From NCBI GenBank assembly GCA_903813345.2, contig CAIIXF020000001.1:10515598-10579597 (forward strand): a stretch of DNA of 64,000 nucleotides. Reading direction: 5' to 3'. This document shows, one piece after another, positions 37,975 to 61,549 of this stretch. The stretch's first letter is position 1; each line of letters begins with the position of its first letter. The DNA comes from Owenia fusiformis. Its lineage: Eukaryota > Annelida > Polychaeta > Sabellida > Oweniidae. The notes under the pieces were generated by a model. That model saw only the letters and a program-made list of their open reading frames with translations. It was not told where the DNA came from and searched no databases. The translations under genes and the position numbers were made by a program.

Positions 37975-40900
37975 ATGAAGACGACAAACGTCCTGCTTGT
38001 AACATGCGCATTGTGCTTCATGTTCACATTAACAGAAACAAGGTCTCTTCGTAAAAGAAAGAAGAACAAAGGCTCGAGCGCTTTGAGTCTAGCGGTAAGT
38101 TGAAAACTTTTACATGCATATGATGCTCCTAAATCATTAGTAATTAATGATTCAGCAAAATATATTCTTAAAATCATAAGTCAAGGGTGGTTCCCGCTGT
38201 CGTTCCCGAATTTTTTAAAAGTATTTCCAAAAATTTTCTTCAAAATCTTCATTTCTCAATTTTCCTCCTATCTCATTTTTTCAAGTTGTGGAAAAAACTT
38301 TTTCTGGACGTCGTCCGGTATTCGGCTGCCGGTAACAAATGGCAAATAGTGACATGTTGCATGTTATATTCACAATTAAGTTATTTAAGATTAATCACAT
38401 AATCATAATCATTATTATCAATACACGTTTCATCAATATATAAACATATACACTGCGCAGTTCATTATGTTTACGTAGCTCATCATGTGATCTAATTAAA
38501 TTATCATTCAATCTTTTGGCATTATGGTATACAACTCCTTTTTCTTGGTCGGTAATTTAATTGAGTTTTACACCTCGAACAAATCATTTCCCCTTGACCC
38601 CTCGGTAAATATTTTCGCTAGGTATATAAAACATGTAGTCAATCCCTCCCATTAAATAACCTCTATCAGTACATGCACTACTCGCATGTTTGATAGTTTA
38701 GTATTTGATATGACCTTAGGTAGTCTTTTATAATGTTATTTTCTCATGATTTCTTTCGTTGTTACAAACGAATTTTGTTAAACATTATTTAGATGAGATG
38801 GGATTATTATAATACATGATTATGTTAAGGTTTCGGCAAAATGTCACTTTAAATGCTCAGGGTAAAAACAATAAATCATGTCGTTTTAGAAAAAGTATTC
38901 ATTTTGAAAAAATTGACCGCCATTCTGACCCCCAAGGCATGGTCAAGACATGTATACGAGGATTGTCCCATAAGTAATGCACTATATGCTCTAACTCTAT
39001 CAATAATTAATTGATATTTATCCATGAAATTTTCAGTAAATGTTCCTCAGAGACATTTTGATTATTCTAATTTTCATGTTGACTGATAAAACTATATTGA
39101 TGTTTAATCAAGGTGAGTTTGGGTAGGGTGGGGCAGGTTATACAGTCACGTCAAAAGGAATAAAAAATTGAAAATATGAAATAATCTATCAACAGATACC
39201 ATTTTGTGTAGCTATAAGAAGTATGCTAAAAAATACATTTTAAGATACGAAATTACTATGAGCACATCCGAGATTTAATGGATGTTTATTGCACAGTGTC
39301 CCATTTCACATTTTTTCAAAAATATTGCCTTTTGCATTTTATGTACTTTTGATGCCTATCAGGTCAAACACTTTTGGCAATTTCTTCCACTGTGACTTGT
39401 GGAGTTTTTGCCTCCCATGTTTGGAGTTGTCTTTCAGGGTCAAGTCATCTCTTTTAAATCTCTTCTGCCACCTCTTAATTGTAGTTCTATCTGGTGTATA
39501 CTCCTGTTATACTTTCTTCATGGTAGCATAAGTTTGTGTGGCTGTGAGTCCATCTGAAAAATTAGGCCACCAAATGCAAGGCCTCCTGTTATTAGGTGAG
39601 AATTGTAGCCATTTTTTGTAATTTCTTGACTGTGGCTGTATTTGATTTTGTGACTATTGAACTGTGGTATTATGACATAACAGTGCTAAATGTCATTATT
39701 TGTACTTGTTTGACATCATGCTGAATAAATTTAACAATTTCCCGAATGTTTTGATCATTTAAAAGAACGAAATATTTATAAAATAACACTTTGGATATTT
39801 TCATAATTAGAGAAATTGGTACCTGTCCCGTCCACCCCTACCCCCATGTTGCTATAGCAACCACATTAAGACTTAATATTAATGTTTGATTCTGAAACTT
39901 CAGGATATAATAGATGAAACTTCAATTGTTATATACACAAAATGTCAGCTGAATTGAAGAATATTAAAGAAAGTTAGAGCATATAGTGCATTACTTCTGG
40001 GACAACCCTCGTATATCCAATATTTAACTGCAAAGAGCGTGTTTGAATTCTGAGTTCTGAGAACATTTTGATTAGCAATTAATATGAATACACGGATTCG
40101 GAATCACCATATCGTTCTCAGTGTTTCGGTTTTAACATTAATTTCTACAATCCTGATAAACATGTCTACAACTGACATTAACCGGACTATTCAGATCCAG
40201 AATTTTAAATATCACTCCAGATTCGATAGTTCTATTATAAACCCCACTGACTCCATCAGTGCTTGTGAACGTAAACTCATCGGTCTTCAAAATATTACAT
40301 TTGATGATGATCTCACTTGGGGTGACGTTTATAGGAAAAACAGTCGTGTTGGAAAGGTGGGCACTGGAGCCCAGAAAACCATTGCAAAATTGAGGAAAAT
40401 GTCGCAATTATCATTCCTTTTCGCAACAGAGAGACACACTTGAAACATTTCCTGAATTACATCCATCCATTCTTGCAGAGACAGATGGTTTCTTATAGGA
40501 TAATTGTTATAGAGCAAAAGGAACCAATCATATTCAACAAGGCATCATTAATGAATATAGGATTTAGAATTACTTCACAACTAGAAAACAGGTATTCTTG
40601 TTTCATATTCCACGATGTCGATTTGTTCCCAGAGAGTGATTTGAACATTTACTCTTGTCTCAACGGTGCAGTAATACACTTTGCTGAATTTATAGACAAA
40701 CACAATTATACATACCCCAGGTTCAGACTAACAGGTGGAGTTATCTCAATTGACAAGCGCGTATTTCAAACCGTCAACGGGTACTCGAATAGATATTGGG
40801 GCTGGGGTGGAGAGGACAAAGATTTCTTTCATCGTTTGGAAGAGAATAACATTAAAATCATTCGCTGTGAAAATGATACTCAATGCCGATACACCATGAT

Positions 40901-43900
40901 AAAACACAAACGGGACACAGGGAGTCCTAAGAACAAAGGGTTTACGATAATGAATAAAAATGAACAGGACACAAACACCGGTGGGATTACAATTGTCAAC
41001 TGACGTAAACCAAGTAGACACATTGTTTGTGTCTGAAAAACGAACTAAGATTAGCATATTTGGTGGATTTGCAAAAATGATAACAGTAAAAAACATTTAA
41101 GGAGTATCTAACATTTTAATAAATTGACTGCGACTGGAATGTAGGGGGAGGGGAGGGGGTTAAAAAGCGCAGAAAAATTATATGACGCAACTTCTCTCAA
41201 GGTTCCAGTACACCATTTCAAATGTGACCGTGTCAGCCTTAAGAATATGGCGGGATGTTATCAGTTATTACACGTTTCAGCATGTGATACGGGAAATATT
41301 CCACGAAAGTAAAAATTGTATAACCACGAAAGCGTAGCTTGAGTGGTGATACTTTTTTACTGAGTGGAATATTTCCCGTATCACATTCGCTGAAACGTGT
41401 AATGACGATTTTATCACATACTATGTAGAAATCTAGTGATTTGATTGGTAGCTTTCTTTGTCGTTCTTACTTCTAGTTCCTCAAATGACAAATTCATCAT
41501 TTCTAATAAATAGTAACATAGATAGGAAAGTATAGAATGAAGTTGTATGACGGCATTTCGTTACCATAAGACAACGTGTGGTACATGTGCTCGTATCATA
41601 TGAAATTTATGTGATTCGGGAAATACGTCATAGAAAGCAACCAATCAAATTATTAGATTTCTACATAGTATGTGATAATAACGGATATCCACTTGTTACA
41701 AAGTTGTATAATATTATCAAGTTGATCACCAGTTTGTTTGGCGAAATACATTTTTAATTTGAAAACTATATTTTCGTGTATTTTTGCTAAATGCCATTTG
41801 AGATCGAGGGTGATTTTGAAAACAAAATTAGATAATTAGTTATTTCCCCAAAATTGTTCTTGGACAGTATTTTGTCACACATCATTATTTGAGATTGAAG
41901 GAGTGGTATCGATATGGTGAACTTTTTGAACACGCGTTTCTCTTAAACCAGTCATCAAAATATTCTGAAAATTTTACACATCGTCAATTTATATAATTAA
42001 TGATCATCTTTTGGATGGTAACATTATAATTTGAAATAAATATATCTACTTTTCTCTATACTGTTTTAGAAAACATATCGGACACTTCTTTTGTTGGTAT
42101 CATATGTTCGGAATGAAATGAAACATCTATCCGAACCTCATTGGAACAAAAGGACATAAACACAACGTGTTTAGGTCTATCAATATTGTAATTGTACAAA
42201 GGAAAGTTTGATTGATTCTAAAAAAGTATCTTGTTTATGAAATAAAAGGTTTATCTTAATTTTTATCCATTTTGGGGGGTTTTGTTTTAGGTTTTTGCAT
42301 ACTTTTTGTAAAATCAACCAAAATTTCCTTTGTTTCACTAGAACATTGAGAGGTCCAAAAAATGTTTTTCCAACAAGGTTCGGAAAGACATTTTACTTCA
42401 TTCTCAAGATTTGGTAGAAAGGAACAAAAAACAATTGCACTAAAAAACAAAAAATGTTACCAAAAACAGTTATAAAAAATATATATAAATAATTTTTGCA
42501 TTAAATTGTTGCCAATCAGTCAACATTACATAAATGACCGTGTTTTTACAAAATGTTTTCAATAATTGGTTTAAGAGAAAAACAATGTTGTATTCAGTTC
42601 ACCATATCGATACCTATCCTTTCACACTTTTCATGTATACCAGCGTTTCGACCAATTATTGTTGATGTAAAGTGTCGGAATTGTTGATTAATGAATCTTC
42701 AACATAAATTATATCGTATGTTTTTTGAATCATTTCCTACATAACATCATAGTACTATCTACATGTATGTTACATTCTGTGAATTGCAAGATTTTCCCCG
42801 GGCATGAACGCTAGATAATAATTTGATGTGAAGGTGATCATGTTTCAGCTTACCTTCGACGCGTTGGGCAACCTGGTGTGGAAAATAGCGGGGGACAAAA
42901 AAGTTACACGTAAGTGATATCAATTCCTGGCAATGGCCAGGAAATAAGAGGTTTACTATTACTGTATAGTGAATCCCCTTTATTTTACCGCATATGCCAA
43001 AATAATGATTGGGAGTATATTGGGAGTATATATACGGGGAGTATATATTGATTTTGCCAAGAAAGAAACTATGATATCTGAATGAGGCTACCCAGAAAGA
43101 TGCCCATGCCATTATGAAACTCTCCTATTAATGAACTTGTTCCCGTGATATCAGTGTACTGTAATTGCAATTGTAAAATGGGTCTCGACAACCTATTTCA
43201 TTTATCTTATCACATACTTAATATAGGATAAACCTCCATCCATATGATTGATCTCCTTCACGGAAGTATGATTGTTATAATAATCCTAATACACAATAGT
43301 TAAATAGACAATTATAAGAACCGTAGTTCAAATCAAGAAAGGTATGACTCTCCCGAGCGCACATCCTTCATTTAAGAACGCAGTGTTAATCAGATAGCTA
43401 TTATGACAAATGTGCACCATACAATGACACATCTCGTACTTTTTATGCATAAACAGCATGTCACGTATCATCTCATTTCCACTACCATGTTTCTGTCGAA
43501 TAATTAATTGTACTTTTTATCATCATTTCAGGTTATAATGCTCAAAAAAGAAGTAAGTACAGTCAATTTTAATTGTGTCGTCCGACCCATAGTCTCAAAC
43601 TAAACAGCTACACCCCGGTCAATTGATTCAAAAACCCCAGCCTCTCATTCTTTCAAATGTGAAGACTTGTCAATTTTCTCTCATATGGTTAGCTTTTGTA
43701 ATCGCTCAGTTAACAGAAACACACACGTTTACATATATAGTCGGTATATATCTTAAGAATTCCAATTTATTTTCAGAAAAGATTATACAAAAAAATCCTT
43801 TTTCGTTTGTGGATGAGGACGAGGAGGATAAGCCTAATACTCCAGGTAATTCGACCTTGATTAATGACATTGAATTAAAAAGACAGCTGAATTGGACAAC

Positions 43901-44747
43901 CTGTAGCGTTCTTGCCCTATTGTACCAAACCACATTTTGCTTACATGGGCAGAATTTTCATTAATGTTCACCTTTTCGGCGATAGTTTTTATTGCTTTTT
44001 TGTTCTTTGTTATGCCAGTATAGTATTTACCTAATTAAATGCCAAACTTGATTTACCGTTTATCTTTCGTTTGAGTTCTAAATAAGCTTTGAAAAAATGC
44101 AGTTGATAGATTCTTTTAAACAATCCATTTCAGAAATTGTGATAAAAACCGGCGAAGAGGAAACTCCAGGTATGTTTGATATTTAACAACAATCATGTTC
44201 TAGATCATTGATGTAAATAGCCAACAAACAAAAAGTAGGATAAAAAACCCTAATCCTAGTAATCATCTCAATTTCATGTCGTTATTTAGAGATTCAAGGA
44301 AGATGGGTTCTAAATGTTTTTATGTTTTCAGAAATTATAATAGTACATCCCGGCTCTAAAGAAAAGCCAGGTAAAAGAATCTTTAATCGAAGATGAAATT
44401 GACATTGTAACTCATGTAAAGTCACACAGTCTTTTTGTCAATTATGTTTATGTTTAATACCAAAAAAAGTTATTAACACTTTTGATCACGGCGTTAGGAT
44501 GAGCCCGTGAGACCAAACAATCGGTTTGTTATTGAAATTTCGGATAAAGTCAAGTTTAAGTTATGTTTTTGGAATGACTGATAATTTCACTCACGGCGAA
44601 ATATACCTACAGAGACATTTCCTAATCACAAACACACGATAAAAATTTGGAAACACCAATGATTCATTTATAGAAGAGGAGTCTTCTCCAGCTGAAGAGG
44701 AGGAAAACGAGAATGAGGAGGAGAAGGAGGAGGAGGAAGAAGAGTAG
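37975..44747 (+). CDS. Small secreted charged protein, member A (acidic tail)
   Basis: Seven coding exons: 37975-38094, 42849-42909, 43532-43552, 43777-43845, 44134-44169, 44332-44370 and 44674-44747. They give 139 residues. A signal peptide (MKTTNVLLVTCALCFMFTLT) is followed by a basic run (RSLRKRKKNKG). Exon 2 encodes LTFDALGNLVWKIAGDKKVT, exon 3 is the 21-base microexon (YNAQKR), exon 4 encodes KKIIQKNPFSFVDEDEEDK. Exons 4, 5 and 6 each end in a phase-1 Pro-Gly join (NTPG, EETPG, EKPG) with EIVI/EIII starting the next two, so they look like duplicated modules. Exon 7 is almost all Glu. A 5' UTR part of the exon begins at 37961. Intron 1 (4.75 kb) contains a mariner remnant, a galactosyltransferase-like copy and several MITEs. 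Members B, C and D share the exon plan. Function unknown; a polyanionic tail could bind Ca2+ or basic partners. Confidence 0.78.
38955..40014 (-). mobile_element. Degenerate mariner-like element
   Basis: Inverted ends ACGAGGRTTGTCCCAKAAGT near 38956 and 40013, with about 40 further matching bases (..AATGCACTATATGCTCTAACT) and TA at the borders. On the minus strand around 39400-39530 a helix-turn-helix-like piece reads TPDRTTIKRWQKRFKRDD followed by KHGRQKLH, typical of the N-terminal part of mariner transposases. The catalytic region is not recognisable. It ends about 70 bases before the galactosyltransferase-like copy. Confidence 0.75.
40084..41003 (+). pseudogene. Intronless beta-1,4-galactosyltransferase-like copy with one frameshift
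   Basis: Two overlapping frames together resemble a beta4GalT. The first (40084 to about 40355) gives a type II membrane anchor (IVLSVSVLTLISTILINM) and stem. The second frame, from about 40355 to the stop at 41003, gives GGHWSPENHCKIEENVA, IIIPFRNRETHLKHFL, HDVDLFPE (the DVD metal site), LTGGVISIDKRVFQTVNGY and WGWGGEDKDFFHRL. These are the conserved family blocks in the right order. The frame changes near GGAAAGGTGGG at about 40352-40362. The C-terminus stops slightly early compared with the family. The lack of introns in an intron-rich genome suggests a retrocopy. It sits in the sense direction inside intron 1 of member A. If the shift is a sequencing error the gene could be functional. 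Confidence 0.75.
41256..41406. repeat. Hairpin MITE with TTACACGTTTCAGC arms
   Basis: The left arm from 41263 (ATTACACGTTTCAGC, then GATACGGGAAATATTCCAC) is the near-perfect inverse of the right arm ending near 41404; the loop is about 50 bases. In intron 1 of member A. Confidence 0.75.
41411..41685. mobile_element. MITE with about 50-bp terminal inverted repeats
   Basis: TTATCACATACTATGTAGAA at the left and its inverse at the right (ending GTGATAATAACG). The inner part ATTTGATTGG..GCTTTCT is also inverted. It is directly next to the preceding hairpin. Confidence 0.75.
41905..42614. mobile_element. GGTATCGATATGGTGAAC-ended transposon, copy 1
   Basis: The terminal inverted repeats GGTATCGATATGGTGAAC at both ends are followed by TCTCTTAAACCA-type sequence. 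The interior around 41960-42060 matches, inverted, the right half of the copy at 55154-55499. No transposase seen. In intron 1 of member A. Confidence 0.75.
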
Positions 44748-45370: not shown

Positions 45371-45414
45371 ATATTACCACCTGCGTTTTACAAAGTACTA
45401 GTAGACGTCAAATA

Positions 45415-46938
45415 GATTTAGCGTGTATTCGCAAATGCAACTAACGCCCGTCGGCTACCAGTGTAAAAGAGTAGGAGGTCCTATCAAATTATGGTCCTAC
45501 TCTCCATTGATTTATATGGTGACCTAAATACAACTCTTTCCCTTATTATCTTATACACAATCAGGGCCAGGAAGGGCCGTTTAGAAAGGGGGCCATAATC
45601 CCCAGGGTACCATAATTTTTTTCACACCTGATAACCCTACTATCACACCAAACTAGTTCTCACTACGTTCTCGAAAACGGGCTTCAACTGTGTACGAACG
45701 GACTGGACCTACTAAGAACCGTTTGGGATCTATTTACAAACTTCATCGAACGTACTCGAACGGGTAGGTCCTCTAGAACTTAGACAATGCTCAAAATTTT
45801 CTCGTGGTCGTCACGTTCTACAATTAGAACGAGTGACAACGTACTAACGACGAGCTGGACGTACTACGAACGGAGCCGTCGTACTTCAATCCTACTAGGG
45901 ACGTTTTAACAACGAGTTGAACTGTCTGAGGACGTGTTGAGAACGAGGTAGAACTTATTGCAAACGGGTTTAAACTGATTAAGAACGTATTTAACACTGC
46001 TTATGAACGAGTTAGCAAAAATATAGCTATCACACCAAACAAGTTGCGACTGCGTTCTTCAAAACTGGTTTTAAACTGTGTGCGAACGGAATGAACGTAG
46101 CTGCAACTTTCTAAGGTCTATTTACGAACTTTATGAACGTTCTCAGACGGGAATGTGATTTTAGAATTTTGAATCGATTTAAAATTCGATGGCGACCATA
46201 CCGTTCTGTAATCAGGTCATGTTGACCTTCTAGACTAAGGGACGCGTTCTACGACGTTGCACACCGACGTGATGCGACCTGAACGAACTGCGAACTAGAT
46301 GGACGTATTGAAGACTGTTTAAGAACGAAGAAGCTAATTATTTCAGACATATTTCCCGACCACAGCCAGATTGAGCCCGTTTTACGACGTTTTCGTAGGA
46401 CTAGCAAGAACGGGTAAGAACTAGTTTGGTGTGATAGGGGGGTTAACCTGCTATTTTATGGGCAACTCGTTTAAATATGAATAGTGCCATGCCACTATTC
46501 CATCCCTAATTAAAGGTGCAACAATTAGTGCAGGGGGGGGGGGGGGGGGTCATTCAACGAACTTCGACCAGTGTCAAAATATATTTAATTTTGGATATTT
46601 CATCAAGACTAACATAATATATATTTTCATTATCTACAATGAACCCCCTGGATGAACATTATTTTAGCTGATATTCCTCTCGAAACGTGGTGGATCTTAA
46701 AAATCTATAAGTGAGACTCCCTTTATAGAAGCTTTGAACTGAATTTACACTTCTTAATGCTGAAATTGATAGTCTGTACATACATTTTAAGAAAATAGGT
46801 ATGTCAAAGAAGGTTTTAGCTCAGAAAAAGTAAAAAATTTCCAATGTTCTCTCTACAGTCCTTGTTGCCCCTTTAAATGTGTTAGTTATAAAAAAGTAGG
46901 TAGCCGACAGGCGTTAGTAGCATTCGGAATATAAGCTT
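45415..46938. mobile_element. MITE with GCGAATGCAACTAACG repeats, copy 2, interrupted
   Basis: The left end lies near 45421-45460 (CGCAAATGCAACTAACGCCC) and the right end at 46896-46938 (GGCGTTAGTAGCATTCGGAA). Between them sits the 45635-46442 element plus a G-tract of about 18 at 46532. The shared TTTAAATATGAATAGT block is at 46468. Confidence 0.65.
45635..46442. mobile_element. TTAA-type element with CCC..CTATCACACCAAACTAG ends, nested in the MITE
   Basis: The inverted ends (CTATCACACCAAACTAGTTCT) are bordered by ATAA on the left and TTAA on the right, suggesting piggyBac-like TTAA insertion with one decayed site. A third copy of the end motif lies inside at 46026. The interior is dense in GAACG/CGTTC words at irregular 10-25 base spacing. 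No transposase frame. Confidence 0.65.
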
Positions 46939-47647: not shown

Positions 47648-47704
47648 TATAAATACATACTGTGGATTACACCAGATATTCATCCTTCGTCGGAAGGCAC
47701 CAGG
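47648..47704 (+). promoter_or_regulatory. Probable TATA box and non-coding first exon of member B
   Basis: TATAAATA at 47648-47655; a donor GGTAAG follows at 47705. The coding exon of B is preceded by the acceptor TTTTCAG ending at 48517, so an upstream exon is needed. Confidence 0.5.
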
Positions 47705-48532
47705 GTAAGTTTGCTTTCTTATTTACGTTTACCAAATATAGCAAACCAGCACTATATTCTTTGTAAAGAAACACGATTCCAAATATAATATTTACGAACT
47801 AATACACACCAATGTCACAGAGATTAAATGTACATTCATGTATTTATTTGAATATAATAAATCATATACATCTTAATCATTCTGTTCCATATTTAGATGT
47901 TGTGTTTCAGTGTTGATAAATTAGTCACCTTGTTTATTTAATCTTATTTAGATTCATGAAAAAGTAATCAGGATACTTTTTTTTTCGGACCTTACTAAAA
48001 TGTTCAAAAAACTTAATTATTTCAGTCTTTTTATGAGGAAATTCTGAAATTTTCTGACTTCTGCGATGAGCCTTCAAGATATCTTGAAAGCCTATGCTGA
48101 TGCTCAGAGATAAAAGAGCTCAGTTCCTGAAGACATTTTTAAGATGACTGGTATTTATCAAAATGGCTGCCATTTGTCGTTAGAAATGTAATCTTTGCTA
48201 ACCCAATTACCAGTTGATAGATTTTATATGCTGATAACTAGGGACAAGGGAGCTCTGTTCAAGAAGAAATTTTCAAGATGCCCGTTATTTATAAGAACCT
48301 GTTTTGTTCATCGGGATTTCCTACTCCGTAGAGTTGCTGTTTTCCAGTTCAATCAACGATACCAGAAATACCCATGCCCATGCATTACAAATATATTTAC
48401 TGTTCCTTAACAGAAACATTCGTGGTGTTTGACTAGTATCACTTCAAATCTTTGTATCCTATATCTGACCCTAAAGCGTAGGAAAAGTCAACATACATCA
48501 ATTTATATATTTTTCAGATCTATTTCGCTAAA

Positions 48533-49174
48533 ATGAAGTTATCAGTAATTGGACTGTTTATATGTGTGCTGGTATGTATAGCATCCGTAGTAGAATCGTC
48601 CCCTTACAGATCAGGCGGCGGATTGATGGGTGGTGTAAGTTTATTCACTCTAAACCAAACAAATTATTAAGCATCTTTTTCATCATCACTTAATAGTCTC
48701 GTGAGTATGATGGCCAATGACGAAATCATAATTGTTTTTATAGCAGCATCAACTAAAACTTTTTTTATTTCAGTTCAAATTTACTCCAAATGGAAACATG
48801 AGGTTTAAATTCATGAATAAGAGAAACAAGAATAAGAAATCTGGAAGTAAGAGAATCTTTATTTAAACACTAAGAAAAATCGCATTTTATTTGTTATAAA
48901 TTAAGAATCGGTCAGTGACGTGATTAAATAGTTAAAATGCAGAAAATGTAATAATAAGTCAATATACGTACAAACAACATTTTTCTTCTTTTTCAGTTTG
49001 GAATCCATTTATAAGGAGTAAGTGATTATTCACATTCATCGCTTTGTACTTCCGGATCTAATTTTTTACTTTTTGAATAAAGCAAGTGCTGCTTTTACAT
49101 TAAAAAATATTTCTACTTCTTTTTTTTCAGAGCGTATTATAGAGAAAAGGCCATTTGGTTTGGTTGATGGCTAA
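48533..49174 (+). CDS. Small secreted charged protein, member B
   Basis: Four coding exons: 48533-48634, 48774-48846, 48997-49017 and 49131-49174, giving 79 residues. The 5' UTR part of exon 1 begins at 48518. The signal peptide (MKLSVIGLFICVLVCIASVV) ends before ESSPYRSGGG, closely matching ESAPLRSSAL of member C. Exon 2 encodes FKFTPNGNMRFKFMN then a basic run (KRNKNKKSG). Exon 3 is the 21-base microexon (WNPFIR). Exon 4 encodes KRIIEKRPFGLVDG and a stop. It is the shortest, most compact member and defines the family core. No known domain; secretion is inferred from the signal peptide. Confidence 0.8.
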
Positions 49175-49779: not shown

Positions 49780-49950
49780 AAAGTATAAAATACATTCTTC
49801 TCATATAAATTACACGTATTGTAAAGTATAAAATACATTCTTCTCATATAAATTACACGTATTGTAAAGTATAAATTACATTCTTCTCATATAAATTACA
49901 CGTATTGTAAAGTATAAATTACATTCTTCTCATATAAATTACACGTATTA
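49780..49950 (+). repeat. 43-bp tandem repeat, four units
   Basis: Units start at 49780, 49823, 49866 and 49909 with AAAGTATAAAATACATTC and continue CTTCTCATATAAATTACACG. They are almost identical, so the expansion is recent. Each unit carries a TATAAA-like word. It lies between members B and C. Confidence 0.9.
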
Positions 49951-50930
49951 TAAGCAATATCTATACCTATTTAATCATGTTTATTATCAATTGTAAATGA
50001 AAACAAGGATTCGCGTTATTTCACATATTAACGGACCAGTAACTAATCAATAGTCTTGAATATGTTCATTGCAGGCAAACAAATAGTTTTTAATGTTCAA
50101 AATGCAGGATACAAGGTCAGAGTCTCGATTATAACAAATATTGAATTGTACTTATGTTAAACAACGTATGTCTTGTTTTCAGACTTTGAATGAGTGTGAC
50201 GGAAATTCAAAATTCATTCAATTTTAATTTTTATGAACAAACTAGATGTTTGTCCCTAAACGCGAGATGGTATTTCACAATATATGCACAGCCTGAAGAG
50301 CGGCCCAACGACCTTGATATTCCGTATTCCTACACTCCCGTGAATGTGACTTTAGTTTGTAAGCTACCATAGGGCAGTACAAATCCTGAATTAACTTTAG
50401 CAAAGTTTATGATGTCAAAGAACTCTCATAAATTATACCTTGGACGTGATGGATGTAATAAAACGGAGAAATTACGGTTTGAAGATAAATTCTGTGTAAT
50501 ACCATTTATGATAAGAAAACAAGCTATCCACTCGGCCGCAGGAGTATATCATTCTAAATACGATACACAAGAGAAGACGGTGAATACACGAAGGATTCGT
50601 GTTTAAGGTACTAATGTTGGGAATATTGTGCTAACAAATTTCGTCAATGATGTATAAATCGGTGTAAATACCGAGAGTATGTTAATCTTTATACATAAAG
50701 GAGGACACAATTCTTCACGGGAGTCGAAAGATTTATTGATTAATAAATAAAAATTGGACATAAATTAGAAGCACTAAGGATGAATCTTAAATTGGCATGC
50801 TGGTACCCGACGTCATACCTTTTCTATTTCACTTTGACTTTACAATGGAGTTTCTTTAATATCAAGGATTGAAAACAAAACCAGGACTAGTCTATCATTA
50901 TATTTTCTCCTTATGTTTCAGGCTCGCACG

Positions 50931-53900
50931 ATGAGTCTATCAACCAATGTGCTTGTTCTATGTTTGGTGATATGCTTAGCAATCGTAGTAGAATCTGCCC
51001 CTCTCAGATCAAGTGCACTGTCGGGTATGGTAAGTCAAAGAACTAATCCAAATGTTATCCATCCCTTTGTTAGAAATTTTGATTGATTATATGCACTATA
51101 TTTATATTCATGTCATAAGTACATGTACATCTAATTAAAATAGATGTATGTACAGGGTGGTCCAAAAAATGGGACACTCGTATTTCCAAAATAAATATTG
51201 ATTTTCTTGATGAAAACATGTCATGTTATATACCAGTGGATAGGGAATTTACTTATCTTTAATTTGGTATATCATAAGTTCAAATTTATTATAATGTCTG
51301 TCAACCAGCGTCCGTTATATAAATTATGTCATTTTAGTTTCAAAACAGGTTTTCCAAAACTTGTAAAAAACAAGTTTTTTGTCAACTTTATGTACACAAA
51401 CAGACGTTTAATATGTCCACCATTTTGATCAATTATAGCCCTCAATTCTGACCTTAACTGGTCAAAAACATCATTAAAATTCTGTTGAGACAATGAATTC
51501 CACTTCTCAACAAGTCTATCCGTAATAAGGGACTGAGTAGATGTAAGGGGTTCACGGTAAACCAATTCTGTTAGTTCTCCCAATACGTGGTAGTGGGGGA
51601 CGTTGACATCGCATTATCCGATTATGTTGTTTTTAGACCATTCTGATATGAACTCATTCTCGAATCATTATATTTTTCAACAAGATGGGGCGCTAAGCAA
51701 TAGATCTCACAAGAGTGTCAAATGTTTAAAGGAAAATGTGCCTAAATTCATCCCCCTAATCACTGCCTCCCCAGATCACACGATCACCCGTCTGCGACTA
51801 CCACGTATGGCAAGAACTAACAGAATTGGTGTACCATGAATCCTTTACATCTATTCAGTCTCTTGAGGACAGAATTGAATTAATGAGAAGTGAAATTCAT
51901 TGTCTTAACAGCATATCAATGATGCTATTGGCCTGTCTTAGTTTAGGCCAAAATTGAGGGGTACAATTGATCAAAATGGTGGACATATTGAACGTCTGTT
52001 TATGTAAATAAAGTTGACAATAAAACTTGTTTTTGCAAGTTTTGGAAAACCCGTTTTGAAATGAAAATGACGTCATTTATATTATGGACGCTGGTTGACT
52101 GACATTATAATAGATTTGAACTTATGATATGATCTAAAGTAAAGGACCTTATAAGGGAACGTCATGTGAAGAATCATATCAAAACTATTACCAAAAATTC
52201 ACTACGTAAATCTTCATCATCTAGATCTTTTTGGCGAACCCTCCAAATGTTTAATGCTAAAAGTAAATTCCCAAATGAAATCATTGACCCATTTAACCCC
52301 AACTCTACGATTGACGACCCCAAACTAGTTTCCCATACGATTGGCAAATATTGGGCAAATGTCGGACCCAAAAGTAGAAACCCCAACTATGTCAAGACCA
52401 ATCTGTCTGATGAACTAAATAAACTTGAAAGTGAAACCAAATTTTTTTGTAAAGGTAGGCGTCTGGAAGACAATATTTTCACTCTTAAAGGTATATGTAG
52501 TCTCCGTAGGGATAAAAATCAAAAGACTTATCTAGCTTTCATCGATATATCGAAAGCCTTTGACGTTATTGACCGTGAACAACTCTTTATATCTCTTTGG
52601 AAGAAAGGAATCCAGGGCAAAGCCTGGCGTGTATTGAAAAATCTATACGCATGTGTCAAAAACAAAGTTATATTTGGTAATTTTGGTAGTGAATGTTTCG
52701 AAGTTGAATCTGGCCTAAAACAGGGATGTGTACTCTCACCTACTCTATTTACTGTAATTATGACCGATTTGATTGACAGCCTGATCGAAAATGATATGGG
52801 TATCCCTTTCAAAGATCTAACTCTACCCGCATTGCTTTTTGCAGATGACATCGTCCTCACAGCTACCAGCGAATCTGATCTCTGTAGAATGCTTGATATT
52901 ACAAACGAATTTGGTAAAAAATGGGGGTTTAGTTTCAGCTCAAAAAAGTCTAAAGTTATGATCATAGGTGGAAAAGTTAACAAACATAAAGTTTGGAAGC
53001 TTGGTGAGCTCTCCCTCAATGAAGTAAAAACATATAAGTACCTTGGCGTTTATTTTGACAAAACACTGAAAGACTCGCACCATATTAATAATATTCTTGG
53101 TTTAAAATCAAAAAAGCTCAAAGGTTATATAACCTCAACCCTCAACAAACATTGTAATATCCAACGAATTCAATTTGGTAACACCATGTATAATAACATG
53201 TTCCTTCCTTCAATATTGCATGGAGCAGGAGTCCTCCTTCCAAACTCAAGCGAAATGAAGAAAAATTTAAAGTCGTATCAATACCAAGCTGGTTTATCCA
53301 TTCTTAGCCTTAAGTGTTCCCCAGCTTATGAAGCCCTTGTCTGTGATATGGGCTGGCGTCCAATTGAAAAGATCTTTCAAAAACGTCAAATCGACTATTT
53401 CTGCTATCTAAAGAATAAAAACTCTCAAACCCTAGTATCAAAGGTTTTATCTGCCCTCTTGGAATCATATTCAATAAATAAAGAATCTAATTGGAAGTAT
53501 GTTTCTAACATAGCAAATATATTAGTGCACCATGGGCTCGATAATAAATTGAATGTTAATTTTGAAGAATGGTACTCATCCTTTCTCAATATTTCCAACG
53601 AAATTACTACTAAGGAATTGTTTTCATCAATTTGCAACCGGCCATCCCTATCCCTTTATAGAAATGTTAAGAGACATGTCTTTCAAGAAGAGTACCTAAA
53701 AAACCCATTCAACTTCCAAGGAGCAAGACAAAAATTCTTAGCCAGGTCGGGTTGCTTTAAATTAGAATCAGACCTTAAAAGGTGGAATAAAAGTGATGGC
53801 TTTTGTAAATTATGCCCCTCCAATTCTTATGACTCTATGTCCCATCGCCTGTTCCTTTGCCCCGTCCTCCAGGATAAAAGAAACCTATTCATTAACAATT

Positions 53901-56743
53901 TAATCTCTTCATGTGACTTTGCCCTTGTAGGTGAATACTTATCAGCGAGCCTTAATGATAAGCTACAATGGATTATTGGTGATTCACTTTACATAGGCAC
54001 ATGGGGGCAGGACCAAATAAATAAATTTGAGAAATGTGTTTACGAATTTTTAAAGGAAATGTATTTTTAATGATTTTAACCTATTGTATGTATGTATTTT
54101 AGTCTCTTTGGATGCACACTAAATTTTAGTAGTGCCGCTGTTGTAAAAGCGTTTTATCCTAATAAATAAATAAAAAAAAAATAAAAAAATATACGAAATT
54201 AAAGATAAGTAAATTCCCTATCCAGTGGTATATAATATGACATGTTTTCATCAAGGAAATCAATATGTATTTTTGAAATACGAGTGTCCCATTTTTTTGG
54301 ACCACCCTGTATATATTCATTAATGCCTCACACCATATATGATATAATACAATAGTAATGCAATAGATTGAAGTCAATTGTCAAACACAAAACATTTCAT
54401 AATTAAATTTAGTAAGAACAAGGAGTCATGTTCATTTAGTTCATGAATAAATGAACATGACTCCTTGTTCTTACAAGTTGATTGCATATGCAATTATTCA
54501 TGCTTATAAGAACATATAAAAATAGACCAAATTAACAGCTATAGTGAATAACTGGGGGGAGGGGGGTACATGTTCAACTATAATTTATTCTACGTGGACA
54601 ACGGGTTCCGGGTTTGACTACATCTGGATTCACAAGGTTTCGGTTGTTCCAACTCATTCTGTTGTTCCTAGACCCAGTGATGGTTTGACTATTGAACAGA
54701 TATCACCATCCAGATAATGTTATATGTGACACTCATTTTTTTTAATGGGAGGTTGAATTAATATTGACAAAATAAGTCATTTTTCAATATTTACAGAATT
54801 TCCACCAAATTCACCACATTCAAATGAGGTACACCTTTGATACACCTGGTATGTTTCTAAATCCAATATTACATTTCAGATCAATTTCACGAAGGATGGA
54901 AAGATTAAGTTCAAGTTCAAGGATAAGAAGAACAAGAGAAAAAAGTTTTTGGGTGAGTAAGTACTACAAATAAAACATGACTGAAGGCGCACTTGAAAAT
55001 CGCCATTTTGTAAACAATGATTTAAGTGATTGGTTTGATTGCCGCAAATTTGCCGCACGCCGAAGAAAATACTATTTCCAATGCTTTTGACATAGAAATT
55101 GTTGTAGATACCAGTAGTACTATTATAAGCATTCGGTATCAAGCCAAACGATAGGTATCGATATGGTGAACTGAATTCAAAAATATTTTTCTCTTATAAA
55201 CCAATTATTGAAAACATTCTGTAAAAAACACGGTCTTTGATGCAATGGTCACTTTGTGTCATTTTGTTCAAATGATGTTCGGATAGATGTTTCATTTCAT
55301 TCCGAACATATTATACCAAGAACAAAACGGAGTCTGATGTATTTTCTAAAACAATATAGAGAAAAATATATCATTTTTTCAAATTATATTGTTACCATTC
55401 AAAAGATGACATTAAATTGACGATGTGTAAAATGTTCAGAATTTTTTGCTGACTGGGTCAAGAGAAATGTGTGTTCAAAAAGTTCACCATATCGATACCA
55501 ATCCTTTAAATGAAATGGGACAAAATCCAGTCTCTAATAGTCCATAAGAATGTCAAAGGGTCAACATCTAACCTGTAATCAACAATTCACAATAGTTATC
55601 AGCTGGAAACAATGCAAAAGCTTGATTCGGTCCCTTTTTTGTCAAAGCCGGATCCATCTTAAAGCATGAAGTTAAGATATACGTATGTAAGAGCTTCATT
55701 TATTATCTGTCATGTCCTAAGTAATATATTTTCTCTTTCAGCTTGGGATCCTGTAAATAGAGGTAAGTTAGAGTATAAACTAGGCTACTTCTCTTTTTAA
55801 TTACTTGAGTTTTTAACAGCTACCATTGCTCGTATGTTACGTATGGAAACATACTAACTGGTAAAATGAATAGAGATGTGTAAGGTTCATGTAAAATAGC
55901 TAAAAGGTGCTGCTATACGTTTTGCTAACAATGTCACCCCGAGAGTTAATCAATAAATGACTCAAATTATGGCCAACACAGAAATCCCAATTTCAGAATT
56001 TTTTTCGGAAAACTTGATATCTCTAAAAATCTTTATCGCTGAAAGTTGTTGATCGATGCTATTCAAGTACAACAAACTTTTTTCCATTGGACACTCTATA
56101 CACACAAAAAATCACGTAGATTCCTTAATTATTGAGACAGTTATTCCAAAATTAGTGGGTGGTGTTTTTATGTCACCCTGTACCTTAAAATATGAGTATT
56201 TTCTCTACATGAAAACTTCGAGACAATTGTATATTTTCTGTCCTTGCATCGTTGCAAGACAAATACGTGCAATAATACTTAAGTCAATCGGACACTTTGT
56301 TCATGAAGGAGATATTCACTCATCAACTTCACCTTTACATAAGGAACAAAATTGTATATATATATTGCTACATGTATGAATAGCATAAAAAGGTTGGCAG
56401 TGCTACATGTATGGGTTTAGGGATGGGGGTGCATATACTGTACATTAGAAACACCCTGTATATCAAATTAATCGTTTTAATTAATCACAAAAATGTGACG
56501 TCGATAATATCAACGCTTATATTTGTGAACATTTTCATTTGATTTTGCTATTTTATTTATTATTGCATCATTTAAACGAGACCAAGTGAACAAGTGATAT
56601 ATTGAATAATCTCAATTTGACTTTTATTTGTTTTAGCATTTGTGAAAATAAAAAACCCATTCGTATTGGAAGGAACAACACCTCCACCTCAAACGACTAC
56701 AAAAAAGCAAAAGAAACGGAAACAGAAAAAGAAACGACAATAA
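50931..56743 (+). CDS. Small secreted charged protein, member C (Lys-rich tail)
   Basis: Four coding exons: 50931-51029, 54880-54952, 55742-55762 and 56637-56743, giving 99 residues. The acceptor before the ATG (..TTTCAG at 50921) implies an upstream non-coding exon. The signal peptide is within MSLSTNVLVLCLVICLAIVV. Exon 2 (73 bases, same length as in B) encodes INFTKDGKIKFKFKD then KKNKRKKFLG. The 21-base microexon gives WDPVNR. Exon 4 encodes AFVKIKNPFVLEGTTPPP, a short Thr patch and a C-terminal run of Lys, Arg and Gln. Intron 1 (3.85 kb) holds a fold-back mariner with a LINE inside it. The exon phases match members A, B and D exactly. Confidence 0.82.
52129..54190 (+). mobile_element. 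5'-truncated LINE inserted into the mariner element
   Basis: The host element's sequence GAACTTATGATAT stops at about 52130 and resumes after an A-rich tail (54160-54188) with ATACGAAATTAAAG. In the undisturbed left arm the two parts are contiguous, so the LINE can be cut out precisely; a short ATAT may be the target duplication. The 3' end has AATAAATAAATAAA. Confidence 0.8.
52166..54070 (+). CDS. Non-LTR retrotransposon reverse transcriptase, internally deleted
   Basis: An open frame of 634 codons from a GTG at 52166; the frame extends a few codons upstream without an ATG, consistent with 5' truncation. RT block A is FIDISKAFD (125-133), block B GLKQGCVLSPTLF (183-195), block C FADD (225-228). 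A C-terminal zinc-knuckle-like CKLC..H..C is near residue 546. The endonuclease domain is absent. The EN-RT linker (FWRTLQMFN, KYWANVG) runs at residue 93 directly into FCKGRRLEDNIF, so roughly 100 or more residues holding the first RT blocks are missing in frame. It is probably not active. Host-gene context: sense orientation inside intron 1 of member C. Confidence 0.88.
   Translation: MKNHIKTITKNSLRKSSSSRSFWRTLQMFNAKSKFPNEIIDPFNPNSTIDDPKLVSHTIGKYWANVGPKSRNPNYVKTNLSDELNKLESETKFFCKGRRLEDNIFTLKGICSLRRDKNQKTYLAFIDISKAFDVIDREQLFISLWKKGIQGKAWRVLKNLYACVKNKVIFGNFGSECFEVESGLKQGCVLSPTLFTVIMTDLIDSLIENDMGIPFKDLTLPALLFADDIVLTATSESDLCRMLDITNEFGKKWGFSFSSKKSKVMIIGGKVNKHKVWKLGELSLNEVKTYKYLGVYFDKTLKDSHHINNILGLKSKKLKGYITSTLNKHCNIQRIQFGNTMYNNMFLPSILHGAGVLLPNSSEMKKNLKSYQYQAGLSILSLKCSPAYEALVCDMGWRPIEKIFQKRQIDYFCYLKNKNSQTLVSKVLSALLESYSINKESNWKYVSNIANILVHHGLDNKLNVNFEEWYSSFLNISNEITTKELFSSICNRPSLSLYRNVKRHVFQEEYLKNPFNFQGARQKFLARSGCFKLESDLKRWNKSDGFCKLCPSNSYDSMSHRLFLCPVLQDKRNLFINNLISSCDFALVGEYLSASLNDKLQWIIGDSLYIGTWGQDQINKFEKCVYEFLKEMYF
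54412..54474. repeat. Perfect 27-bp hairpin, 9-base loop
   Basis: 54412-54438 (GTAAGAACAAGGAGTCATG..) is the exact inverse of 54448-54474. In intron 1 of member C, downstream of the transposon. Confidence 0.9.
55154..55499. mobile_element. GGTATCGATATGGTGAAC-ended transposon, copy 2
   Basis: The same inverted ends as the 41905-42614 copy and about 150 bases of interior shared in opposite orientation, but half the length. In intron 2 of member C. Confidence 0.75.
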
Positions 56744-56796
56744 CAATAACAACGACATAAATTAACGAAGGATGTACTCGCTGACGGTTCATAACA

Positions 56797-56802
56797 AATA
56801 AA
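56797..56802 (+). promoter_or_regulatory. Poly(A) signal AATAAA of member C
   Basis: AATAAA 54 bases after the stop at 56743. Confidence 0.6.
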
Positions 56803-57362: not shown

Positions 57363-58094
57363 AAACCCGTCAACCCATTGGTGGACCAAACCCGTCAACC
57401 CATTGGCCAATCAAACCCGTCAACCCATTGGTCAACTAAACCCGTCAACCCATTGGTCAACCAAACCCGTCAACCCATTGGTCAACTAAACCCGTCAACC
57501 CATTGGTTAATCAAACCTGTCAACCCATTGGTCAACTAAACCCGTCAACCCATTGGTTAATCAAACCTGTCAACCCATTGGTCAACCAAATTCGTCAACC
57601 CATTGGTGAAACAAACCCGTCAACCCATTGGTCAACCAAACCCGTCAACCCATTGGTCAACCAAACCGGTCAACCCATTGGTTAATCAAACCTGTCAACC
57701 CATTGGTCAACCAAACCCGTCAACCCATTGGTTAATCAAACCTGTCAACCCATTGGTCAACCAAACCCGTCAACCCATTGGTCAACTAAACCCGTCAACC
57801 CATTGGTTAATCAAACCCGTCAACCCATTGGTCAACTAAACCCGTCAACCCATTGGTGAAACAAACCCGTCAACCCATTGGTCAACCAAACCCGTCAACC
57901 CATTGGTCAACTAAACCCGTCAACCCATTGGTTAATCAAACCTGTCAACCCATTGGTCAACTAAACCCGTCAACCCATTGGTTAATCAAACCTGTCAACC
58001 CATTGGTCAACTAAACCCGTCAACCCATTGGTTAATCAAACCTGTCAACCCATTGGTCAACCAAATTCGTCAACCCATTGGTTAATCAAACGCG
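57363..58094 (+). repeat. 24-bp minisatellite, about 30 units
   Basis: The unit is AAACCCGTCAACCCATTGGT plus CAAC, with recurring variants: CAACT, CAACC, TAATC, GAAAC, and AACCTG or AATTCG in place of AACCCG. The variants follow each other in repeated order (for example CAACT then TAATC plus CCTG), so units were amplified in blocks. 24 is a multiple of three and the unit has no stop in two frames, which creates open frames; there is no other sign of coding. Confidence 0.95.
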
Positions 58095-59259
58095 TTAAAA
58101 AAGATAATAAGGTCAAAAGGGATATAATGATACCCAATGTTAAGTCAAAGGTGTATATTCTCATGTTTAGTCAATGCACGCTTTTGCTGCAATCTCAATA
58201 TTCTCAAGAGAAAATTCATAATTTGAATTCTACAGGGTGTCAAATGGCGTCGTACCCCCCTCCCCAGCATAAACTAGGAGTACATGATTTGCATTCTGTA
58301 TATCATTGGAAAGAGCATTCAATTCTGGATAACCCAAGATGAGTCAGGCATTGCTACATATTTTCACATGAATTTGAAATCAATGCCTTTTTATTGGTTT
58401 TGATGAAAATCCTACAAAGACTTTTTTGGTATTGATCAATACCCTAGCAACAACTCCGCCTTGAACGCTAGTGCAAATTGAGCTCATATAAATGGATAAA
58501 TTAGAGCTATTTATGGAAGCTGAAGTTGCAGAGAACAAAATATTCTAAATGTGTCATTCACAAGAACCTCAAAAGGTATTGAGATCTCTTGAGAAAAAAC
58601 ACTGCTATTGTCCACGCCCTTTTATCTTCATATCCAACCAAAAACTGGCAGCCGTGTTAAGCTGTACACATGTTGTACTTGTTTTTTATTCTGGTAAATG
58701 AATTATGACCGGGTGATTACTAGTTGGCGCCATTACGCCCCCACTAGTCTATCATCAATACATCTGTATCATACGTTTGCTTGTTAATTTCATTTTGTTA
58801 ACATTTAAATACATCAGTATATTCTGTAGGTTTTCACACAACTGGCGAGTCTCATTCTAGCCGTACCCATAACCTACTTTCTATGTTTATTGGTTCGGTA
58901 AACATTTTAATCCCATTCATTTAAATCTATCGTTCCTACATCCTTATGCAATTACTAGCATACGTACATTCCTTTTTTTATTCGATGTGATAATATATGA
59001 TAAGACAATACTCGACAGTATTTAGATATCAATCATGAGAATAAGGTGGATGATGTGAAAAGTGCATTTATTATTCCAGATGTTAAATACGACTGAGTGC
59101 GTATCTTCTTAGAATTCGGGATACTTACCAGTGAAAACCTCACCAATTAAATCAAAAGGATAATTAAGAAAATCATATTTTTTACTAATGACTCAATGAT
59201 TTATTAAGAAGAAAAAATCAACTGAACATTTTTAATAAACAGGGCTAATTAAGAACAAA
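58095..59259. other. Intergenic upstream of member D
   Basis: Holds a CAGGGTGTC motif at 58233 (a solo MITE end). No exon seen. An AG at the end of TTTAATAAACAG (59241) may be an acceptor for the ATG-bearing exon of D. Confidence 0.35.
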
Positions 59260-61549
59260 ATGAATCTAGGGTGTTGGATAATCGTGTTATTGTGCTTGTT
59301 CTTAACAACAACGCATGCTCAGGATAAAAAAGAAAAAGATAAAAAGAACAAGAACAAAAAGAACAAGAAGACAACTACTACCACAACAGCAAGTGAAACC
59401 ACAACAACAATTCCAACTACAACCGTAACAACAGCAACAATAGATAAAATTCCCGAGGATGAAGGAGAGATAATAAAGTTACGTATTCCAGGGGAACGAC
59501 GAGCTAACCGAACTATTCCTGATAGTGAATTCAAAATCAGGGTGAGTATATCCATGTATCACTCTAGTCTAACATTATTTTATTAGAGGTAACACTTGCC
59601 ACTTTTAACATTAGAAATACTGATATTGTTACAAATATATAAGTGTGCAAAATAGAGATCCAAAGTATGTTGATATTATAGAAGCAAAAAGCTAGAACTC
59701 CTTTCTGAACCTTTAAAATAAAATAATATCTCAGAACGCGAAGATGGATTCTTTAGTCGCCAACCATGAGTTCCTCACTCCCGGACATATTTCTCCACTC
59801 GCGCACCGAGTTCCAACATCGCGAACATTTTGTACATAGTACATTCGGCTACTTGGGATTCCAAGTTATATGTCAAAATGTCCAAAGCCATAGGACTCAG
59901 TCCTTTCACAGAACATGTCAAGGGGCGGGATCGCAAAGAAGTCTTCTGTTGTTGAGATCAAGTCTGCACTCTATTAAATAGTACATAAGTTTTTCAGTAT
60001 TCCAGAATTTGACACTTGCATTTCAAACAAAACTTTTTTGAAAAATCTCCAAAATATATTTTTAAGTCTTGAAAGTTGGTAAATGAATGATGAAAACATA
60101 TTTCAAATTTTACACAGGGGCTTTCACTTTCGTTTTCCACAGGCGTTTGTATGGGTTAAAAATGAAAAGATCCGTATTGTAATAAAACATATTTTTATTC
60201 TCCTTTTTTTATTCTAATTGCATCATATTAATGAAATTACCATTGTAGCAAAAAAATCAACAATAAATGTCAAAGTTGGTTCTTTATTCTGACATCTTCT
60301 CTTCATCGTACAATATGGCTGCCATTTCATGTACATAATTTAGAAACTGGGAATAAATATGAGACTCCCGAGCCTCCATTCACGGATAGTGTCCAAAATA
60401 TATTGGAATTTCTCTATATAAGTATAACAATGTGCCAAGCACCGATTATCTCAGAGTTTTAATCCATATGATACTACCCGTAGCATTGTGTTGATAGAAC
60501 ATTTAATCATGTATATAATTCCAGATTAACATCGTAAATGGAATATTGAAAGTGGAGTTGTTGGGGGAAGCAAACTCAGATATGGAGGAAATATGTAAGA
60601 TATTATATTCTGAACCATGGTAACTTGATTCGAATTCTGTTTCCTGGGCTATTAGGCTACAATAGCGTGTTAACTTAGCAAAACATTGCATGGGTTTCAT
60701 TTCTGCGGGATACGACCATGATTTGACATGACACGTATTACTTAGAGGTTATGTCACTATGACGTGAAATATGCCTGAGTTCTCCCAATATAGGCCGACC
60801 TTGGGAGGCTCTATATTTGGGCAAGAACGAAGGCATATTTCACGTCATAGTGACATAACTGATGTATTACATGCCTTTGTTCCCATGGTTACTTTGTATC
60901 AATGACGTGACGTCATGATATTATCATGGTTATTAAAGAAATCTAATATCAAAACGAGGTAAGCGGGCTATATCGGGGTAATCGGGCAATATCGGTGGAT
61001 ATAGCTCGCTAACTTTCCCATTGACTTCCATACAAATGCTTCGCTAGGTATGTAATACTAGAAGTTATTGAACAGAACAATGGACAATATGATACTGTGG
61101 TGGGAAAAACTGTTGGCCAAGTTGTAGTTCTGCTCCTTCTTAGTAACCCGAAAAAAGTTTTAATTCATATTGATGTAACTGACCCATTTGATAAACATGG
61201 ACATGTAATAGCTTGAAATTGTCTCTCATGTAGAAATACTAATTGCCGATTCAAAATCAAAAAGTGTAACTTGTACTGGCAATTACAATTACAAGATATT
61301 TCTTCTTTGATGCTTTCACCCTATAATAATCTATAATAATCAAATGTTACACACCACTTTAAGCCGACACATTTGTATAATACATAATGGGTCAAAACCT
61401 TCATATATACTTTTAATTTTGCTAAAGAATTAAAAAAAATTATGGAGATGCAGTTTAAGTCGGTCTACCAAATGTTTCCAACATGTCATGACAATGTTTT
61501 AAAAAATATGATGTCTTTTCTGTTTCAGTGTTCGACGTGATCAAAAAGA
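59260..61549 (+). CDS. Small secreted charged protein, member D (last exon not located)
   Basis: Three coding exons: 59260-59541, 60525-60594 and 61529-61549, in phases 0, 1, 1 as in A, B and C. The signal peptide (MNLGCWIIVLLCLFLTTTHA) precedes a Lys/Asn run (KKEKDKKNKNKKNKK), a Thr-rich patch, and EIIKLRIPGERRANRTIP. Exon 2 encodes INIVNGILKVELLG, matching INFTKDGKIKFKF of C. Exon 3 is the 21-base microexon (FDVIKK). A terminal exon beginning in phase 1 should follow; the next 2.4 kb is transposon-rich and I found no acceptable one, so it lies beyond the window, is lost, or was missed. Its large first exon with Lys and Thr tracts is unlike the others. Confidence 0.7.
60749..60858. repeat. 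Hairpin MITE, copy 2 (27-bp arms, GACCTTGGGAGG loop)
   Basis: Arms 60749-60775 (TTATGTCACTATGACGTGAA..) and 60832-60858 are exact inverses. The arms differ from copy 1 at 31351 in their middle, but both arms changed together. In intron 2 of member D. Confidence 0.85.

What the first reader, a model, noticed from the sequence alone, without database searches (positions are those of the whole stretch)
37975..61549. Unrecognised cluster of four small secreted proteins built on one exon plan
Seen: members A, B, C and D each have a signal-peptide exon ending in phase 0. Next comes a 61-73 base exon ending in phase 1, whose product alternates hydrophobic and charged residues around a Gly (FTPNGNMRFKF, FTKDGKIKFKF, FDALGNLVWKI, IVNGILKVEL). 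Then comes a microexon of exactly 21 bases, phase 1 to 1 (WNPFIR, WDPVNR, YNAQKR, FDVIKK). In A, B and C a charged C-terminal exon follows, with a shared basic-hydrophobic start (KKIIQKNPF, KRIIEKRPF, VKIKNPF). Sequence identity is low but exon lengths and phases are fixed. I know no family of this form. Inference: tandem duplication followed by fast divergence, as in matrix, mucus or defence peptides.
Basis: partly seen in the sequence, partly recalled or inferred. Interest (0 to 1): 0.88.

Follow-up and report, generated by a model that had tools for sequence, protein, structure and literature searches.

The report
Eight-gene array of unknown secreted proteins
A probable marine worm carries a row of eight neighbouring genes for small secreted proteins of an undescribed family, each with one tiny 21-base exon in the same place; the family looks real, but its job is unknown.

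Summary
The four gene models (A-D) have canonical splice sites and the stated phases; the microexon is 21 bases, phase 1-1, in 4 of 4. Seventy kb fetched downstream gave D's missing last exon and four more genes (D2, E, F, G): eight genes, all on +; G's last exon was not found. A microexon matrix trained on the four window genes ranks the downstream ones 5th-8th of 834 candidates, at 23 bits or more against 10.8 for the next. A pattern made from all eight has eight matches in the 498-Mb genome, all here. Hydrophobic start and no cysteine afterwards: 8 of 8. Core: amphipathic beta-hairpin exon, microexon [FWY][DN]xxx[KR], exon with PF; tails vary. No Pfam family passes its cut-off. The genome is probably an annelid, so mantle is unlikely. 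Function is inferred: I favour a secreted matrix, mucus or tube protein over a defence peptide, as core charge runs from -5 to +12. No transcripts or other animal genomes could be examined.

The parts
37975..38094 (+). Gene C exon 1 (120): signal peptide plus basic stretch, ends phase 0
42849..42909 (+). Gene C exon 2 (61): hairpin exon LTFDALGNLVWKI.., phase 0 to 1
43532..43552 (+). Gene C exon 3: 21-base microexon YNAQKR, phase 1-1
43777..43845 (+). Gene C exon 4 (69): KKIIQKNPFSFV.., phase 1-1
44134..44169 (+). Gene C exon 5 (36), phase 1-1, EIVIKTGEEETP
44332..44370 (+). Gene C exon 6 (39), phase 1-1, EIIIVHPGSKEKP
44674..44747 (+). Gene C exon 7 (74): Glu-rich C-terminus and stop
48533..48634 (+). 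Gene A exon 1 (102): signal peptide, ends phase 0
48774..48846 (+). Gene A exon 2 (73): FKFTPNGNMRFKF..
48997..49017 (+). Gene A exon 3: 21-base microexon WNPFIR
49131..49174 (+). Gene A exon 4 (44): KRIIEKRPFGLVDG and stop
50931..51029 (+). Gene B exon 1 (99): signal peptide, ends phase 0
54880..54952 (+). Gene B exon 2 (73): INFTKDGKIKFKF..
55742..55762 (+). Gene B exon 3: 21-base microexon WDPVNR
56637..56743 (+). Gene B exon 4 (107): VKIKNPFVLE, then Thr/Lys-rich tail and stop
59260..59541 (+). Gene D exon 1 (282): signal peptide, Lys-rich and Thr-rich stretch, ends ..SEFKIR, phase 0
60525..60594 (+). Gene D exon 2 (70): INIVNGILKVEL..
61529..61549 (+). Gene D exon 3: 21-base microexon FDVIKK; exon 4 (..IIKEVRPFVIE..) lies beyond the window at coordinates 66447-66649 = G000:C1:10582044-10582246

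Best explanation
This is an eight-gene tandem array (C-A-B-D-D2-E-F-G, about 59 kb) of a family of small secreted proteins that no searched library holds. Shown: clean splice signals, one exon plan, eight 21-base microexons whose shared pattern is found nowhere else in the genome, a hydrophobic signal-like start, no cysteine after residue 22, an invariant G and [FWY][DN] (8 of 8) and PF (7 of 7). Inferred from sequence: each protein has one compact core, an amphipathic beta-hairpin (end of exon 1 plus exon 2), an amphipathic helix (microexon plus start of exon 4) and a PF strand, while the tails, Lys-, Thr- or Glu-rich, change freely. Inferred, most likely working: the core makes the proteins associate with each other or with a partner without disulfides, and the charged or Thr-rich tails set hydration and ionic cross-linking, so that they act as components of a secreted material (mucus, tube or cuticle). 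The gene family itself I hold at about 0.95; the confidence given here is for the whole statement with its role.
For: Gene models. Held-out matrix test: downstream microexons rank 5-8 of 834. Genome pattern: 8 matches, 8 in the array, 0 in both backward controls. Shuffles: 0 of 2000 reach the observed similarity of the hairpin strand (8 genes) or of the exon 3-4 stretch (7 genes), also without D2. Strand alternation: 0 of 5000 shuffles for each strand; helix moment 217 of 5000. Cysteine after residue 22: 0 in 8 of 8, G being incomplete. dN<dS in D/D2 (0.16/0.45) and A/B (0.43/0.92); D/D2 core differences by codon position 11/4/13 over 67 codons. Role: tails differ most between members and core charge is not constant; D scores weakly with 'New_glue' (E 2.6e-6, 27.5 bits, below the cut-off of 31) and with mucin models, which may reflect Thr-rich composition only.
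Against: No transcript, tissue or proteome was examined, so the role is inference. Strands and helix were delimited by eye before the shuffle tests. No structure was predicted. Five of the eight proteins have a net charge of +8 or more after residue 22, which fits a defence peptide as well. E/G has dN above dS (1.24/1.08). G lacks a found last exon and has a weak exon 1 donor (gttaac); F has weaker donors too (gtaatt, gtgggt).
Confidence: 0.42

Rival explanations
1. Secreted antimicrobial peptides: a cysteine-free cationic beta-hairpin plus helix that disrupts bacterial membranes; divergence driven by microbes.
For: Small, secreted, tandem, divergent; A, B, E, F and the incomplete G have net charge +12, +21, +11, +11, +8 after residue 22; amphipathic strands. 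Annelids use beta-hairpin antimicrobial peptides (PMC10745061, passages).
Against: Core charge is -2 in D and -5 in D2, and C after residue 22 is -10, so cationicity is not a family trait. No BRICHOS hit and no cysteine. dN<dS in the two closest pairs.
Confidence: 0.27
2. Secreted variation system like schistosome micro-exon genes: symmetrical small exons are skipped or included to make variants.
For: The 21-base exon is phase 1-1 in 8 of 8, and C has three more phase 1-1 exons of 69, 36 and 39 bases, so skipping keeps the frame.
Against: Microexon splice sites are near consensus in 8 of 8 (TTTYAG/GTRAGT), which suggests constitutive use; one microexon per gene in the models of A, B and D-G; it carries conserved core residues.
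Confidence: 0.1
3. Secreted signals or gamete-recognition proteins: short-range ligands with a conserved receptor-binding core.
For: Conserved core with free tails; tandem array. One pair, E/G, has dN above dS.
Against: By eye no consistent dibasic or amidation layout; the two closest pairs show constraint.
Confidence: 0.1
4. Not a gene family: chance exons assembled by eye.
For: No transcripts seen; G incomplete.
Against: Held-out ranking 5-8 of 834, genome-wide uniqueness of the pattern, 0 of 2000 shuffles, dN<dS in D/D2 and A/B.
Confidence: 0.03

Closest known systems
Schistosome micro-exon genes (MEGs; PMC4350168, passages)
   Same: Signal peptide, small symmetrical exon, secreted, divergent proteins.
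   Different: In MEGs most of the coding region is very small symmetrical exons and they appear restricted to platyhelminths; here one fixed 21-base exon carries conserved core residues, and the host is probably an annelid.
Polychaete BRICHOS-related antimicrobial peptides (arenicin, capitellacin, HfBRI-25; PMC10745061, passages)
   Same: Annelid, secreted, beta-hairpin, often cationic.
   Different: No BRICHOS match and no cysteine after residue 22. Arenicin is the C-terminal part of a BRICHOS precursor; here the hairpin lies in the middle. One partial BRICHOS match lies elsewhere in the genome, on C4.
Secreted glue or mucin-like proteins (Pfam New_glue PF21827, Mucin PF01456)
   Same: D has a Thr-rich, Lys-rich secreted stretch that scores weakly.
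   Different: Below the curated cut-offs and in the first 60 or so residues only; the shared core has no match.

Membership tests
One gene family (the array itself) | Signal-peptide exon in phase 0, hairpin exon 0 to 1, 21-base exon 1-1, PF exon | tested here: met
   Exons 1-3 in 8 of 8, PF exon in 7 of 8; G's last exon not found
One gene family (the array itself) | Sequence similarity above chance between members | tested here: met
Schistosome MEG | Most of the coding region in small symmetrical exons | tested here: not met
   A: 21 of 240 coding bases; C: 165 of 420 if exons 3-6 are counted
Schistosome MEG | Signal peptide | tested here: met
   Hydrophobic N-terminus in 8 of 8, by hydropathy only, no SignalP
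Schistosome MEG | Alternative splicing of the microexons | not testable with these tools
   no RNA data
BRICHOS-related antimicrobial peptides | BRICHOS domain | tested here: not met
   PF04089 not listed for 4 proteins at E<=5, 5 at E<=1 or 7 cores at E<=10; the tool's filters drop most matches above about 0.1, so a much decayed domain is not excluded
BRICHOS-related antimicrobial peptides | Disulfide-stabilised hairpin (the hairpin members; helical members also exist) | tested here: not met
   0 cysteines after residue 22 in 8 of 8, G incomplete
Antimicrobial peptides in general | Kills bacteria | not testable with these tools
   bench assay needed
New_glue / mucin-like proteins | Match over the curated cut-off | tested here: not met
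   D: New_glue 27.5 bits against 31, Mucin 18.8 against 34.7

The most novel reading that the evidence does not exclude
An undescribed cysteine-free secreted mini-domain (hairpin, helix, PF strand) whose elements are divided by exons, with a 21-base exon that kept its length and phases in all eight genes while the proteins fell to 18-44% identity (D/D2 70%). It would be a new extracellular assembly module whose tails were exchanged freely to make a multi-component secreted material.
Probability: 0.4. Interest if true: 0.62.

Novelty: new variant of a known kind. Interest (0 to 1): 0.5.

Why it matters
Lineage-restricted secreted proteins are a large dark part of marine invertebrate genomes (general knowledge), and gene prediction may well miss genes built on 21-base exons and introns of up to 5 kb. 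An eight-gene array with a fixed exon plan gives a profile that can be searched in related worms, and a compact disulfide-free core that can be expressed and tested.

Tried and rejected
Genome-wide protein searches found each gene's own exons, A/B cross-matches, and weak places on C1:46.6 Mb (E 3.0) and C8 (E 7.2). They miss the cluster's own divergent members, so they do not show absence elsewhere. The microexon pattern with one mismatch gave one extra place (C11:11649185) with CTAAGT in place of the donor, so no exon; with two mismatches 26 places (8 exact, 1 with one, 17 with two) against 31 and 41 in the backward controls, so noise.

Profile search of the PDB: 11 sequences at E<=10, the best v31Bagel8 (E 2.1e-11, 46.8 bits), nvBagel4 (5.2e-6) and 'Cell surface protein' (4.7e-5). 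Each covers profile positions 3-13 only and no single stretch passes, so the score is a sum of short repeats; I take these to be beta-propeller hairpins (recalled, not from the call) and read the match as likeness of a turn, not homology.

Known-family readings rejected for D: conotoxin (22.9 bits against 25.1); for B: calcitonin (13.7 against 22.3) and CUSTOS (14.4 against 27.4). Cores: one weak hit each in Pfam (Rhomboid_N, E 0.19, 1 of 7) and NCBIfam (E 0.13, 1 of 7).

Rows dropped in the exon scans: 1324, 73966 and a second border for E, 62050, 73966, 123767, a second border for E, and 58594 among the PF exons; microexon candidates 78067 and 79104 (E), 98872 (G), 94450 (F). They did not fit in position, motif or order. 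G's fourth exon: no candidate with PF and a fair acceptor fitted. Borders were first set wrong and corrected.

Papers: three searches aimed at a described family of this form listed 10 of 2,752, 10 of 8,241 and 5 of 5 papers; none of the listed titles or abstracts describes one; listings only were seen, and most subscription papers are not held. Searches served for context.

Full report
Observation. Every inner exon border is AG..GT. Exon 1 encodes a hydrophobic start and ends in phase 0; exon 2 is 61, 73, 73 and 70 bases (C, A, B, D) and ends in phase 1; exon 3 is 21 bases, phase 1-1, in 4 of 4; A, B and C then have an exon that carries PF.

The array is larger. The window is G000:C1:10515598-10579597 in a 498-Mb assembly of 525 contigs. 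I fetched 70 kb downstream and 10 kb upstream. A first scan for exon-2-like exons with splice signals listed the four known ones, E and F, and two others that I dropped; searches added D2, G and D's last exon, and one search printed the models. In window coordinates: D exon 4 66447-66649; D2 68409-68603/71529-71598/72176-72196/73852-73964; E 75278-75379/76093-76165/78143-78163/79590-79663; F 81064-81273 (a later ATG at 81085 is as likely)/85168-85222/86424-86444/88343-88392; G 92775-92900/94683-94755/96804-96824, with no last exon found. C1 coordinate = window coordinate + 10515597. All eight are on +, each with a 21-base microexon: C YNAQKR, A WNPFIR, B WDPVNR, D FDVIKK, D2 FDMIRK, E YDYIRK, F FDMVKK, G WDPVKK.

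Is it more than chance? (1) A weight matrix of the microexon with its splice sites, trained only on the four window genes, was run over 144 kb on both strands. Of 834 AG-21-GT candidates, the four training genes hold ranks 1-4 and the four others ranks 5-8 (33.5, 30.0, 27.3, 23.2 bits); rank 9 has 10.8. (2) A 33-base pattern that covers all eight has 8 matches in the genome, all in this array, and 0 in both backward controls. The pattern was made from the eight, so that it finds them is by construction; that it finds nothing else is the result, within the limits the tool states (withheld stretches read N). With one mismatch one more place appears, without a donor; with two, noise. (3) Shuffling residues within each peptide, 0 of 2000 reach the similarity of the G-plus-six strand (8 genes) or of the 19-residue exon 3-4 stretch (7 genes; G left out since its last exon is unknown); the same without D2.

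Coding constraint. Of 28 gene pairs 27 have pS above pN; E/G is the exception (dN 1.24, dS 1.08, 18% identity). Most pairs are near saturation. The two closest: A/B dN 0.43, dS 0.92; D/D2 dN 0.16, dS 0.45. In the 67-codon D/D2 core, differences by codon position are 11, 4, 13. This is constraint, not shown positive selection. AATAAA or ATTAAA lies within 400 bases of the last exon in 7 of 7 complete models, weak evidence in DNA of 34.6% G+C.

Anatomy of the protein. Columns set out by hand over all eight: first strand h-x-h (F and G depart at one place each), a turn, an invariant Gly, then x-h-x-h-[KE]-h with the three hydrophobic places filled in 8 of 8. Microexon: aromatic, then D or N, in 8 of 8; K or R at its sixth residue in 8 of 8. 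Last exon: [IV] at column 9 and PF in 7 of 7. Alternation of the two strands exceeds all 5000 shuffles each; the helix moment is modest, 217 of 5000 shuffles reach it. I drew the strands and helix by eye, so these tests describe more than they prove. Cysteine after residue 22: none in 8 of 8, G incomplete. Highest 15-residue mean hydropathy after residue 30 is 1.50, so no second membrane-like stretch. Tails after the core: Glu-rich in C, Thr/Pro then poly-Lys/Arg in B, Thr- and Lys-rich in D and D2, Thr-rich in E, four residues in F, two in A. Net core charge: A +12, B +10, C +7, D -2, D2 -5, E +7, F +6.

What it is not. Pfam: no family over its cut-off for nine protein entries from eight genes (D twice) or for seven cores; NCBIfam one hit at E 0.13 in 1 of 7 cores. 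PDB by sequence: one match for E at E 0.095. The core profile scores well with repeat proteins called 'Bagel' or 'Cell surface protein' (best E 2.1e-11), but only over 11 positions of the hairpin and by summing repeats, with no single stretch passing; I read it as a shared turn shape. BRICHOS, the annelid hairpin precursor domain, is not found in these genes and gives one partial match elsewhere (C4, 28.6 bits against 25).

Whose genome? PF16915, annelid haemoglobin linker, has three matches over the cut-off; that this domain is typical of annelids is recalled. Size and the highest contig number in my listings at C12 fit Owenia fusiformis, whose assembly spans 505.8 Mb in 12 chromosome-scale scaffolds (PMC9977687, passages). 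The species is inference.

Working model. The microexon is not a mere spacer: it starts with the conserved aromatic-acidic pair and ends in a basic residue. Skipping it would keep the frame but cut the core, and its splice sites are near consensus in all eight, so I expect it to be constitutive. A core that keeps pattern but not letters, with tails that change freely, suggests that shape or association is selected and that the tails tune charge. That the core is basic in five and acidic in two of the seven measured speaks against a uniform membrane-killing peptide and for mixed association, as in a secreted material. This step is inference, and a defence role is the main rival.

Novelty. Tandem arrays of lineage-restricted secreted genes are a known kind (general knowledge). 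This family, its core and its fixed microexon were not found in Pfam, NCBIfam or PDB, nor in the listings of three paper searches. Other animal genomes could not be searched here, so restriction to this lineage is not shown.

Noticed in passing
window 40084-41003 +: Intronless beta-1,4-galactosyltransferase-like reading (Glyco_transf_7N and 7C on 40440-41000) inside intron 1 of gene C, split into two overlapping frames; looks like a broken retrocopy.
   Followed up: partly
window about 51152-54310: Intron 1 of gene B holds a reverse transcriptase ORF (52166-54070, RVT_1), flanked by inverted ends of a TIR-like element (ACAGGGTGGTCC...) seen by eye, i.e. a nested insertion.
   Followed up: partly
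window 57363-58095: Minisatellite of 29 copies of a 25-base unit (AAACCCGTCAACCCATTGGTCAACC) between genes B and D.
   Followed up: no
window 49780-49953: Four copies of a 43-base unit, 98% matches, between genes A and B.
   Followed up: no
window about 45640-46440; L006 about 4230-5020: Repeat family with CACCAAACTAGTT-like ends (by eye); copies in intron 1 of D2 and intron 3 of E are 89% alike over 717 bases (window coordinates 70548-71256 and 78237-78942).
   Followed up: partly
L012 about 1800-2900 + and 5650-6200 -: Series of GTCTGAATTTACGAATTTTAG-like units spaced about 183 bases, on both strands, upstream of the window.
   Followed up: no
window 44134-44370: Gene C exons 5 and 6 (36 and 39 bases, both phase 1-1) begin alike (AAATTGTGATA, AAATTATAATA) and look like a duplicated exon.
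   Followed up: partly
window 37961-37974, 48518-48532, 50922-50930, 59243-59259: Genes A, B, C and D (and D2 downstream) have an acceptor-like ..cag 9-17 bases before the ATG, so a shared non-coding first exon is likely.
   Followed up: partly
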